Of a stretch of DNA of 64,000 nucleotides, positions 43,239 to 50,820 are shown one piece after another. A program made the position numbers and the translations under genes. Position 1 is the stretch's first letter. The number at the start of each line of letters is the position of its first letter. The notes below the pieces were generated by a model, which did no database searches, had not been told where the DNA came from, and was given only the letters and a program-made list of their open reading frames with translations. This DNA comes from Russula earlei (Eukaryota; Basidiomycota; Agaricomycetes; Russulales; Russulaceae), in NCBI GenBank assembly GCA_025769875.1, contig JAGFNK010000008.1, positions 248,001 through 312,000 on the forward strand. Direction: 5' to 3'.

Positions 43239-44618
43239 TCAATACGGCACTTCATTGAAGAGCTTTGAAATGCTTTCTCCATAGTGACTCCGTCGAATCA
43301 CCTCGCCCAACACGGGTCCGATATCAATCACCTCGATCTTCTTGCACCTCTTCTGGTTTTCCTCTTGCGGCAACGTGTTGGTGACGATCAGCTTATCCAA
43401 TGCGCTATTCTCCACTGCCTCTAACGCGTTTCCACTCAAAATCCCGTGCGTCACCATTGCAAAAACCTTTTCTATCCCCGCTTCGGCTAGGTGGTGCGCT
43501 GCCAGGCATAGAGTCCCGCACGTATCCGCCATGTCGTCCACCAAGATCCCCACCTTGCCCTTGACTTGCCCGACGAGCACCATCCGTGATACCTCATTTG
43601 CCTTTTTCCGTTCCTTGTGAAATAGCGCAAAGTCGACCCCCAACCGGTCGGCCATTGAGGTAGCCCTACAACGGGTGCACACGATTTCCTTCCGCCCCCG
43701 TTGAATCCCTGCTACATAGCCACGCACCTTTTAGCACCACCTGCATCAGGAGAGACGATAACCAGGTTTGACAGGTCAAAATTCGACCGTATATAGAGTA
43801 TCAGAGATGGCTCCGCATAGAGCTGATGGAGCATATGCCGTCAGACCATCAACGGTATGAGGCGTGCTCCAATCTAAAGACACCAACTTACGCTGCGGCG
43901 CCTCATGATCAGCCACTAAATACGTATTCACATAATTCAACTCACTTGTCAACCGGAACATCGAAGAAACCTTGGATCTGCGATGCGTGTAAATCCATCG
44001 TCTTCCATTCACGGATAGTCATTTCCCGGTCAACAGCAATATCAAAACCAATATCGACAAAACACAGCGTTCAACGATGACTCCTCGGTGTAAAAACGAG
44101 CCTACTCACGATGACGTGATCGCAGCCCGATTTCTGCAGCATGTTTGCCACCAATTTCGCCGTGATCGGTGCACGACTTTTGTCTTTTTTGTCCTGCCGT
44201 GCGTAAGGGAAGAGTGGCACGACTGCGGTGATCCGCTTCGCGCTAGCGATTTTGCAGGCGTGGATCATAATGCAAAGCTCCATCAAGGCCGTATTGATTG
44301 CCCCGCAACCCGTGTTGATGATGTACACGTCGTCCTCGCGCACCGATTCCGCGATGCGAACGTTGGTCTCGCCAATGCCGCTCTGCATCACCTCTGCGCG
44401 CGCGACATGTATCCCAAGCCTGGGGAAAACCTCAGCCAGCCAAACAGAGGGAACGATGCACGATCTTTCTACCGTCTGCAGATAATCGCCGCCAGCTGTG
44501 GGTGACTCGTGCCTTCCCACGAGGACGATGATGTCGATGTCCGTCATAAGCTGACTTGGAACCGTCACCGCGGGAGGGACGCACCAGTGAATATTCGAAT
44601 CCCGCTACCATTCAGCAT
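43239..44618 (-). CDS. PRS: Ribose-phosphate pyrophosphokinase (PRPP synthetase)
   Basis: Makes PRPP from ribose 5-phosphate and ATP for purine, pyrimidine, His and Trp synthesis. Spliced reading: exon 1 44618-44585 ([12 protein letters not shown]), exon 2 44512-44473 ([13 protein letters not shown]), exon 3 44419-44110 (ends [16 protein letters not shown]), exon 4 44001-43946 ([18 protein letters not shown]), a one-base exon at 43892, exon 6 from 43822 ([18 protein letters not shown], then [14 protein letters not shown]), and a last exon ending [12 protein letters not shown]. The ATP/Mg loop [16 protein letters not shown] and the PRPP loop [15 protein letters not shown] are intact. Phrases such as [18 protein letters not shown] place it with the catalytic Prs2/3/4 type rather than the long Prs1/5 type. 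A nearer ATG at 44547 is in the wrong frame. The gene looks intact if the one-base exon is real. Confidence 0.93.
43892..43892 (-). other. PRS: Candidate one-nucleotide exon of the pyrophosphokinase gene
   Basis: Minus strand: exon 4 ends GACAA at 43946, then gtgagt...ctgat...gccgcag (53 bases), a single C, then gtaagt...ctgac...ccatcag (69 bases), then CTCTATGCG. AA + C makes AAC, the conserved Asn of VDNLYAEP. Treating 43945-43823 as one intron gives the wrong frame and a stop within ten codons. Confidence 0.72.
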
Positions 44619-48301: not shown

Positions 48302-50820
48302 TCACTGGCTGGGGCCACCGTTCAAGATACTCAACAACTGGGAATTCTGAGGGTTCGTAATTGAGTGGGGGAACCGAAAACTGGATGAAACTCCGGGTGG
48401 GGAAGGAAGACCTTGCGCAGCAGCAGTTCCAAAGGTAGCTTGAGAAGGAAGGACATGTAACGGTGGAGGTGGACCCCTGCCAACTACAGGCGGGTGAGGG
48501 CCAGTTCGAAATATCGGCGCACCTGCCACGACAGGGGAAGTAGAGGGAAAGCTAGGGCTATTATTATAGGACATTGGAGGGATTGGAGGCCGTTGGAGAC
48601 CCGGTGTAGAAGGATAGGAAGTCCCTGAGAGAGCACCGAGTAGCTGAGCCTGGTTCATACTCCCTCGAGTATTGAATGGACGTGGAGGATGATTTGGCAC
48701 TGGGCGGAAGGAATTGCTGGTCCGCGGGCGCACAGTGAAGGCATTATCTAGAGATGATGGATTAAAAGATCCTGTCTGAGGTACGGATGGTAGGTAGGGT
48801 CCATGGGTATTGGAGTACATTGGCGATAAGTTAGTGAGGTTATGAGACATCACAGTATCAGGGGTGAGGGGTGTATGGATGGCAGTAGAGGATGCTTCGT
48901 GTGGTGGTGACGGTGGTTGCGTTACAGGACGCATTGGTGGGGCCAGAGTCATCCGGGATGATTCGTCGGCTACAGCTTCGAGCAGGGCGAGCTGCCTCAG
49001 TCGTTTGCCATTCATAGGGATACCAGCAGGACGAGCCAAATATGGTGAAAGATCGGCTGAAACCATAGACGATCGTCCTGAGTGGGTGGGCGACTTGGCA
49101 CCTGATGGCCGCGAAGTGACAACCGCCGGGGTGATAGTGGACTGGCTTGGCAGATGTGGAGATGATACATGCGACGCGGGCGACGAGGTATTGAGGCGGC
49201 TTGGGTCGTTTGAAAGAACAGACATGCTCGATCGCTTAGCAGGCTTGGAAGTCGTGTGGGAGTGGGCCACCGCGGCTGACTCTCCTATTAGAGCCGCGCC
49301 GCTTGTGAGCACGTTACGCGTTTGAGGAACTCCATGTGACGTTGGCGCATCTCCTACAGCTGCAGGGAGTACTGAAGGGGGGTGAAGCCCTGCACCTGCG
49401 GGAGGAACACCATCCAAATTTCCATCACCAGTTGCATTTGCATTAGCGGATAGGGTCAAACCACTGAGAAGACGAGCAAAATGAGAATCGACCGCTTTGC
49501 TGTCCAAACCATTGGTTTGTGTTGTTTGTGCAACATCAAAACGGGTGGCGACTGCCTCACTATACAAAGGCGAAGGTGTCTGGGGATCCCCATTGTCGGC
49601 AGATGAAGTCTGGGAGCTGGACTCTTGAGCAGTCGTATCCAGGTGGGTGGTGGGACATTCCATGGCTGAAGTGTCGCTCTCATCGGGGAACTCTTGTTTG
49701 TGCCGAACGTCCTTAGTTCGTTGTGTCCGTCGAGGCGGCTTTCGAGGTTTGTGTTCATTGATGAAGGCCTTCAGTGGGCTAAATGGGCCGTCAACATAGG
49801 CAGTCGCAATAAGGAAGGGAACGCACCCAATAAACGGAGAAATGAGATAGAATCTACCCGGGGCGGCCTTGTTCCGTTTCCATGTAGGCAGATCAACAAG
49901 TCTGAACCACTCAATTTTCTGCGCGAAAAGAGTTTGTTCGGAATATCAACGTGACAGACGTTTACTTACGCTGATTTCCTTGCGTGTTTTAGTTTCAAAA
50001 GGGAAGTCTTCGGGAATTCCAGGAACAACAAAAAGTGAAATCTGTTGCTCCCTGATTTCCATCTCAATCACGTTTTCCAGGTTAATCTTTCCGTTGAGAT
50101 TGTAACCCGTTTCTTCTGCAACCTTGACAAAATATTACGACAAGGTCCCAGGCGGTATGAGGGTGGCATACCTCACGCGCAGCACACTCATGAGAAGGTT
50201 CATTCTGGTTGATCTTCCCTTTTGGGAAACCCCATCCCGAAGAAGACTTCCATCCTTTCACGAGCACCACCTGAATCACGTCGAGTAAGATGATGCCTCA
50301 CGGAAGTACAACGTGAATTTGACCTTATCCCAGGTGTCGTTCAGCATGATTGCGCCGCAGACGGGTACTCGGGTCTTGTATCGCATGAAATGGTCGAATG
50401 CTCCGTCATGATCGCCTCTCCATCGCTCAAGGAGAGGACATGCTTGGAAAAACATCTCGGAGAACTTTTTCAAGGGTAGTGACGGAAATTTGGGGTTTTC
50501 TTCACGTATGAAATCTTCATAGTACCAATGTCTAAAATGAAAGCGAACGATGAACTCAGAGAGTAAGCATGGTATGAGCTGGAGTCATACGCTTGTTCAA
50601 CTTGGAAGCATATCCTCTCCAAAGAAGCTAATTCATTATCCGGAAGATTGAGGATAAAACGACTGGAAACAGTTTGACCACAAGCAAGTGAGCGCTACAT
50701 CAAAACCCACCTGGAGAGATCATCGAGGACTTCGTCGATAGTGGAGTATTTGTAAGGGTTTGGTGGGTGTGTGTGTAAATTGGGGGACAGTTCTGGAGAC
50801 GAGGAAGAAGAAGAGGCCAT
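48302..50820 (-). CDS. DCP2: mRNA-decapping enzyme Dcp2
   Basis: Removes the 7-methylguanosine cap in cytoplasmic mRNA decay (P-bodies), with Dcp1 and Edc proteins. ATG 50820 starts MASSSSSSPELSPNLHTHPP; the helical Dcp1-binding domain follows (STIDEVLDDLSRRFILNLP, then LERICFQVEQAHWYYEDFIR). The Nudix domain has GWGFPKGKINQNEP and, across a short intron near 50170-50125, CAAREVAEETGYNLNG, an exact Nudix box with catalytic Glu residues. Box B-like KIEWFRLVDLPTWKR lies near 49900. The C-terminal 450 residues are disordered, Ser/Pro-rich, with short leucine motifs FARLLSGLTL, AQLLGALSG and SQLLSILNG near the end. Introns also lie near 50700, 50560, 50300 and 49970. The stop at 48302 immediately follows a possible donor (gtgagc), so one more C-terminal exon is possible. 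Confidence 0.93.

What the first reader, a model, noticed from the sequence alone, without database searches (positions are those of the whole stretch)
43823..43945. A single-nucleotide exon in the PRPP synthetase gene
Exon 4 ends phase 2 (AA) and the next exon starts at a codon boundary (CTC TAT). One 123-base intron would break the frame. Inside it there are two complete intron signatures back to back: gtgagt, ctgat, gccgcag (53 bases), one C at 43892, then gtaagt, ctgac, ccatcag (69 bases). Using the C gives AAC, the Asn of the conserved VDNLYAEP motif. An alternative acceptor ten bases upstream (exon gcgccgcagc) is also in frame but would put the branch site about six bases from the acceptor and replace the conserved Asn with KRRS. 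One-base exons are hardly known; a plant case (Arabidopsis APC11) has been described.
Basis: partly seen in the sequence, partly recalled or inferred. Interest (0 to 1): 0.9.

Follow-up and report, generated by a model that had tools for sequence, protein, structure and literature searches.

The report
One-nucleotide exon in mushroom PRPP synthetase
A basic metabolic gene of the mushroom Russula earlei appears to carry an exon of a single DNA letter between two ordinary introns, and mushroom relatives seem to share it although most of their database gene models examined get it wrong.

Summary
On the minus strand of a Russula earlei contig, the PRPP synthetase gene reads GACAA|gtgagt…gccgcag (53 nt)|C|gtaagt…ccatcag (69 nt)|CTCTAT. 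Among 35 open in-frame GT-AG paths enumerated, only the one using the single C at 43892 gives the conserved VDNLYAEP. The NCBI model differs from the window's translation only by dropping Val-Asp-Asn here. In the 120 best-scoring homologues, 6 of 56 genome-derived models keep VDN; of 64 short-contig, cDNA-like proteins, 63 read VDN and one VDS. Model errors carry the flanking signals: 23 of 23 K-X-L insertions are W, C or Y, as a GTRNGT donor requires, and four models read N-V-S, the translation of (AA)C|GTAAGT. So the exon is probably shared across Agaricomycetes orders; similar defects in Tremellomycetes and Cystobasidium models hint at an older origin. One-nucleotide exons are known: plant APC11 and VPS55 (conserved in land plants, also misannotated) and Fusarium CYP621A. 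This is a new member of that kind, in a basidiomycete housekeeping gene. No RNA of this species and no relative's DNA could be examined.

The parts
43239..44618 (-). PRPP synthetase (phosphoribosyl pyrophosphokinase) gene, start codon to stop codon, seven exons, 320 aa
   Evidence: CDS 963 nt, translation equals P0001 (Russula earlei) with VDN restored
44585..44618 (-). exon 1 (34 nt)
44473..44512 (-). exon 2 (40 nt)
44110..44419 (-). exon 3 (310 nt)
43946..44001 (-). exon 4 (56 nt), ends GTT GAC AA, phase 2
43893..43945 (-). intron 4 (53 nt): gtgagt, ctgat, gccgcag
43892..43892 (-). exon 5: a single C (G on the + strand), third base of the AAC codon for Asn147 (aligned with human PRPS1 Asn144)
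43823..43891 (-). intron 5 (69 nt): gtaagt, ctgac, ccatcag
43728..43822 (-). exon 6 (95 nt), starts CTC TAT
43239..43665 (-). exon 7 (427 nt), ends at TGA
43892..43901 (-). rejected alternative: 10-nt exon GCGCCGCAGC (DKRRSLYAEP)
43952..43953 (-). GT of the poor upstream donor gttgac implied by the NCBI model (drops Val-Asp-Asn)

Best explanation
The PRPP synthetase gene contains an exon of one nucleotide, C at 43892 on the minus strand, probably constitutive. It is flanked by two ordinary short GT-AG introns and completes the AAC codon of Asn147 in the VDNLYAEP motif. Shown: the sequence, the frame, the uniqueness of this path among the canonical ones enumerated, and the protein product in relatives. 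Inferred: the two introns are recognised by intron definition and removed one after the other, because an acceptor AG and a donor GT one base apart can hardly both be occupied at once. Either order works. Removing intron 4 first leaves ACAAC|gtaagt, a recursive-splicing-like intermediate; removing intron 5 first leaves gcag|CCTCTAT. The consensus gtaagt would make up for the lack of exon bases pairing with U1. The arrangement is probably shared across many orders of Agaricomycetes and perhaps older, and annotation pipelines fail on it because they do not accept one-base exons.
For: Frame and sequence. Only 1 of 35 enumerated in-frame canonical paths gives VDNLYAEP. In the 120 listed homologues, 63 of 64 short-contig proteins read VDN[LY/LF] and 1 reads VDS, against 6 of 56 genome-derived models with VDN intact; over all three searches the short-contig count is 89 of 90. 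Elsewhere in the protein only three of the 56 models have internal indels. 43 of the 64 short-contig proteins come from contigs too short to hold the 963-nt CDS plus six 45-nt introns, so they look like cDNA. Error signatures: among the 120 fungal genome models of the three searches, 23 carry a K-X-L insertion and X is W, C or Y in 23 of 23, the only sense readings of T-R-N, as retention of GTRN from a GTRNGT donor after AA predicts. N-V-S in four models (P0034, P0056, P0117, P0138) is the translation of (AA)C|GTNAGY; the window's own intron-5 retention also reads VDNVS. The paralogue in the same genome reads GTT GAC AAC ATC TAC uninterrupted. Control: 1 of 306 decoy introns has such a tandem, and it is this site.
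Against: No RNA from Russula earlei was available, and no genomic DNA of any relative could be fetched: one pattern scanned in viral and in prokaryote contigs found 0, and metagenome scans were capped at zero. Six of 56 genome models have VDN (two of these clusters, P0008 and P0043, also hold lgn sequences), so some species may have lost an intron, or their annotators handled it. The 21 'K for N' models are explained only by guess, and five others (P0063, P0064, P0068, P0072, P0116) do not fit the two main signatures. That short contigs are cDNA is inferred from their length. One short-contig protein has Ser, not Asn. Species and sequences are not independent.
Confidence: 0.93

Rival explanations
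1. The annotated NCBI model is right: the upstream donor gttgac at 43953 is used, and the enzyme lacks Val-Asp-Asn.
For: It is in frame, it is the deposited model for this gene (P0001), and 10 of 56 genome models share it.
Against: None of the 64 short-contig proteins lacks these three residues. gttgac is a poor donor beside gtgagt 8 bases downstream. Asn144 of human PRPS1, the aligned residue, is listed with Ser132 and Tyr146 among allosteric-site residues strictly conserved in eukaryotes (PMC5395218, passage seen).
Confidence: 0.02
2. A 10-nt exon GCGCCGCAGC is used, giving DKRRSLYAEP.
For: In frame with canonical GT-AG ends and the same strong donors.
Against: Intron of only 44 nt with the branch A 7 nt from the junction; no KRRS insertion in any of the 64 short-contig or 56 genome proteins. 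It may occur as a minor isoform.
Confidence: 0.02
3. Assembly error: one base is missing at an exon edge and there is a single ordinary 123-nt intron.
For: One missing base would restore the frame; the site has one match in the assembly, so no second haplotype confirms it.
Against: Models of separately sequenced genomes in several orders fail at the same codon. An error would not create YAG-C-GTAAGT with two branch-like sites inside.
Confidence: 0.02
4. A nested twin intron (stwintron): one intron inside a splice element of another, the whole 123 nt removed in two steps leaving no exon base.
For: Two sets of splice signals back to back in a fungus; stwintrons are known in fungi (starts of abstracts in the listing).
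Against: Removing all 123 nt breaks the frame with a stop at codon 154; no donor or acceptor is split.
Confidence: 0.01

Closest known systems
Plant APC11 single-nucleotide exon (PMC4674806: abstract, introduction and Discussion seen; PMC8831610: passages seen)
   Same: One-base exon between two introns; frame depends on it; missing from reference annotations; present in most land plants; sequential removal by intron definition suggested by the 2015 authors.
   Different: Plant, other gene. There splicing was shown by RNA work; here RNA of the species is lacking.
Plant VPS55 1-nt microexon (PMC8831610, passages seen)
   Same: One-base exon conserved from non-vascular to flowering plants, missed by annotations, with a conserved GTRAGT donor, as here (gtaagt).
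   Different: Plant gene; in some plants alternative transcripts with and without the base are reported; no such data here.
Fusarium CYP621A single-nucleotide exon (PMC12940212, 2026; parts 1 and 2 of 3 of the text seen)
   Same: Fungal nuclear gene; one base completing a codon in a conserved motif; deposited models wrong at that place, its authors suspecting that gene models cannot show a one-base exon.
   Different: P450 subfamily of Fusarium (Ascomycota) with base G and 18 SRA reads. Here a basidiomycete housekeeping enzyme with base C, apparently spread over several orders. That paper calls itself the first for a fungal gene.
Mitochondrial one-base exons: placozoan cox1 (PMC5436844, passages) and fungal rnl between two group II introns (PMC12308204, passages)
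   Same: One-base exon; the cox1 case is a C that keeps a conserved residue.
   Different: Organelle genes, not the nuclear spliceosome.
Stwintrons (PMC12403724, PMC6616335; starts of abstracts in the listing)
   Same: Two fungal introns at one place removed in consecutive reactions.
   Different: In stwintrons one intron splits a splice element of the other; here one coding base stays between two complete introns.

Membership tests
Single-nucleotide exon (APC11, VPS55, CYP621A kind) | Exactly one base between an acceptor AG and a donor GT | tested here: met
   gccgcag|C|gtaagt at 43899-43886, minus strand
Single-nucleotide exon (APC11, VPS55, CYP621A kind) | Both flanking introns have canonical donor, branch-like site and acceptor, and usual length | tested here: met
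   53 nt gtgagt/ctgat/cag and 69 nt gtaagt/ctgac/cag; the other introns of the gene are 72, 53, 108 and 62 nt; no genome-wide intron set was built
Single-nucleotide exon (APC11, VPS55, CYP621A kind) | Frame and conserved motif need that base | tested here: met
   1 of 35 enumerated in-frame canonical paths gives VDNLYAEP; skipping gives a stop at codon 154
Single-nucleotide exon (APC11, VPS55, CYP621A kind) | The base is present in mature mRNA of this species | not testable with these tools
   No RNA of Russula earlei held; in relatives 63 of 64 short-contig proteins have Asn, which is indirect
Single-nucleotide exon (APC11, VPS55, CYP621A kind) | Same arrangement in orthologous genes | tested here: inconclusive
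   Relatives' DNA not available; errors in their models imply it (W/C/Y 23 of 23; N-V-S in four models)
Stwintron | Internal intron splits a splice element of an external intron | tested here: not met
   Both introns have complete elements; removal of all 123 nt shifts the frame
PRPP synthetase family (human PRPS1/2-like) | Full-length homology including the VDNLYAEP motif | tested here: met
   E about 3e-130 to Ribose-phosphate pyrophosphokinase 1 chains over residues 6-319

The most novel reading that the evidence does not exclude
The one-nucleotide exon is inherited from an early basidiomycete: the same VDN defect appears in six Tremellomycete models and one Cystobasidium (Pucciniomycotina) model. 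It has lasted because splicing it is a control point: skipping the base, or keeping either intron, gives an early stop, so the enzyme that feeds nucleotide synthesis could be turned down by unproductive splicing.
Probability: 0.2. Interest if true: 0.87.

Novelty: new member of a known kind. Interest (0 to 1): 0.7.

Why it matters
In the papers opened here, nuclear one-base exons are reported for plant APC11 and VPS55 and for a Fusarium P450 subfamily. This one sits in a housekeeping enzyme of mushrooms, appears to be shared over several orders, and is misread in 50 of the 56 genome-derived models listed. If confirmed, fungi as well as land plants keep one-base exons over long times. It gives tractable mushrooms (Coprinopsis, Schizophyllum) as systems for testing how the spliceosome handles an acceptor and a donor one base apart, and predicts that others hide behind recurrent motif defects in annotated genomes. 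It also means that many database sequences of this enzyme lack or alter the residue that corresponds to human Asn144.

Tried and rejected
Looked for relatives' DNA with the degenerate pattern TTYGAYGTNCCNGTNGAYAAGTRNGT: 0 in viral contigs and 0 in genome contigs. Looked for a second haplotype of the locus: one match only, itself, whereas the paralogue has two copies, on C168 and C509, 98.4% identical over 3,449 bases. A family search hoping for fungal control genomes gave 14 prokaryotes only. A synthetic query meant to reach outgroup fungi returned mostly Agaricomycetes by name; of its 22 new proteins two are animal ones, left out of the counts, 16 are genome models and four short-contig. The third protein search was deliberately biased towards models lacking VDN, so it shows presence in outgroups, not rates; of its 72 new proteins P0143 (fish) and P0144 (unnamed, sequence not of this type) were left out, 48 are genome models (P0174 only as an nr record) and 22 short-contig. 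The second CAGCGTAAGT in the window (49973-49964, minus) reads as an ordinary exon end followed by one intron. Two papers on Cryptococcus annotation hold the word microexon only for an aligner setting (passages). Considered and rejected: stwintron, non-canonical single intron (it would give Lys, not the Asn seen in relatives), pseudogene (the gene is otherwise intact).

Full report
WHAT IS THERE. The window is part of contig C8 (positions 248001-312000) of a 66.6-Mb assembly. C8 is 334,533 bases long, the same length as the contig behind P0001, the Russula earlei phosphoribosyl pyrophosphokinase, so the source is almost certainly that Russula earlei assembly (Russulales, Agaricomycetes). The gene lies on the minus strand at 44618-43239. 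I built it from the sequence: exons of 34, 40, 310, 56, 1, 95 and 427 nt, introns of 72, 53, 108, 53, 69 and 62 nt. The CDS is 963 nt and its 320-aa translation is identical to P0001 with the three residues VDN put back. The deposited model is therefore the same gene with a difference at this place: it reads FFDVP-LYAEP, which implies the poor upstream donor gttgac at 43953.

THE FRAME. Exon 4 ends GTT GAC AA and the next long exon starts CTC TAT GCG. Taking out all 123 nt shifts the frame and gives a stop at codon 154; keeping intron 4 or intron 5 gives stops at codons 148 and 153. I enumerated GT-AG paths with one or two introns of at least 40 nt across the region (exon 4 to 25 nt into exon 6). 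Of 35 that keep the frame open, 1 gives VDNLYAEP: intron 4, the single C at 43892, intron 5. Both introns have strong donors (gtgagt, gtaagt), a CTRAY-like branch site with its A 16 and 18 nt before the junction, and cag acceptors. The 10-nt alternative needs a 44-nt intron with the branch A 7 nt from the junction.

IS IT MORE THAN CHANCE? The ten-base motif alone is not rare (3 found, 2.46 expected in the window). In place it is: among 306 stretches of 100-150 nt starting GTRNGT and ending YAG in the window, 1 contains YAG-Y-GTRNGT with at least 45 nt on each side, and that one is this site; with GTRAGT it is 1 of 90. The other CAGCGTAAGT in the window reads as an ordinary exon end.

RELATIVES. 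The first protein search scored 8000 candidates and lists the 120 best. I split these by source into 56 genome-derived models (an ncbi record) and 64 proteins known only from short contigs (jgi or lgn). After QGFFD, the short-contig proteins read VPVDNLY (42), VPVDNLF (21) or VPVDSLY (1). The genome models read VDN intact in 6 of 56; K for N in 21; VDN missing in 10; K plus one extra residue in 11; N-V-S insertions in 3; five are other. Away from this site only three of the 56 genome models have internal indels. The Fisher test gives 8e-26, but the sequences are related and clustered, so the number only says the contrast is large. Two of the six intact clusters (P0008, P0043) also hold lgn sequences. 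Over the three searches 89 of 90 short-contig proteins have VDN intact. That the short contigs are cDNA is inferred: the longest contig behind 43 of the 64 is under 1,233 nt, too short for the 963-nt CDS and six 45-nt introns. The nearest of them, P0003 (cluster of 72 member sequences), is 93% identical to the Russula compacta and Lactarius sanguifluus models and reads VDNLYAEP, while those two genome models read VDKWLYAEP and PLYAEP.

THE ERRORS SHOW THE SIGNALS. If the real donor after GACAA is GTRNGT and a program moves to the GT four bases on, it keeps GTRN and reads AAG TRN CTC, that is K-X-L with X limited to W, C, Y or a stop. Over the 120 fungal genome models of the three searches 23 have K-X-L, and X is W in 14, Y in 5 and C in 4, 23 of 23 (not independent events, but spread over several orders by the names given, orders recalled). 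In Russula earlei the same shift would read AAG TGA, a stop, which may explain why its model took another donor. N-V-S in P0034 (Rhizopogon, Boletales), P0056 (Tricholomella), P0117 (Lyophyllum, Agaricales) and P0138 (Phanerochaete, Polyporales) is AAY GTN AGY, the translation of the one-base exon followed by its donor; the window gives the same V-D-N-V-S when intron 5 is kept. These are indirect views of relatives' DNA, which I could not fetch. The K-for-N models and the five others are not explained this way.

HOW OLD. The hybrid query added 16 genome models, 0 of 16 with VDN intact. The third search used the VDN-less region as a probe and is biased on purpose: 38 of its 48 new fungal genome models lack VDN, 7 have K for N, 3 have K-X-L. 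Those lacking VDN include Cantharellales (P0165), Auriculariales (P0171), Hysterangiales (P0176), Hymenochaetales (P0153), six Tremellomycetes (Cryptococcus and Kwoniella: P0174, P0175, P0177-P0180) and Cystobasidium (P0186, Pucciniomycotina) (lineage looked up for one Kwoniella, recalled for the other five). No rate can be drawn from it. Sharing across Agaricomycetes orders is well supported though indirect; an origin at the base of Basidiomycota is a lead.

FUNCTION OF THE RESIDUE. Asn147 aligns with Asn144 of the PRPS1 chains in the PDB. A paper on the Mycobacterium smegmatis enzyme names Ser132, Asn144 and Tyr146 among residues of the human allosteric site strictly conserved in eukaryotes (PMC5395218, passage seen). 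The paralogue in this genome encodes GTT GAC AAC ATC TAC without interruption.

MECHANISM. Inferred: the two introns are taken out one after the other by intron definition, since U1 and the acceptor-binding factors can hardly sit one base apart at the same time. The authors of the Arabidopsis case suggest removal one after another too (PMC4674806, Discussion seen). In plant VPS55 the donor after the one-base exon is a conserved GTRAGT (PMC8831610, passage); here it is gtaagt. A control role through skipping is possible: the skipped form has a stop at codon 154, before the last junction. It is untested.

KNOWN OR NEW. Fourteen papers hold 'single-nucleotide exon' and five hold a spelling variant; of these I opened six, as parts or passages. 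They report plant APC11 and VPS55, Fusarium CYP621A, placozoan cox1 and a fungal mitochondrial rnl case. Searches for microexon with basidiomycete and intron (6 papers), tiny exon with Cryptococcus (0), micro-exon with fungi and phosphoribosyl (0) and microexons or micro-exons with mushroom or Agaricomycetes (any two of four terms: 2,099 papers, 15 listed) showed no report of this gene. The library holds open-licence papers only. It is a new member of a known kind. The plant cases show that deep conservation and systematic misannotation are not unique to it; a basidiomycete housekeeping gene is, as far as these searches go, new.

Noticed in passing
43239-44618 (-): The deposited Russula earlei protein (P0001) lacks Val-Asp-Asn, and 50 of the 56 genome-derived orthologue models are altered at the same codons: a recurrent database annotation error.
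   Followed up: yes
49964-49973 (-): A second CAGCGTAAGT lies at what reads as an ordinary exon end of a gene that looks like a Nudix/decapping-type protein (name recalled, not searched).
   Followed up: partly
L004, L005 (contigs C168 and C509): A second PRPP synthetase gene (64% identical over 157 aa) is present as two copies 98.4% identical over 3,449 bases, perhaps two haplotypes, while the C8 gene has one match in the assembly.
   Followed up: partly
P0064, P0068, P0072: Macrolepiota and Leucocoprinus models carry odd readings (VDNLYYSLY, RGYYSLY, FGYSLY) at the same place that I could not translate back into a clear splice pattern; the site may differ in that group.
   Followed up: no
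P0014: One short-contig protein reads VDSLYAEP instead of VDN; sequencing error, natural variant or another base at the codon cannot be told apart.
   Followed up: no
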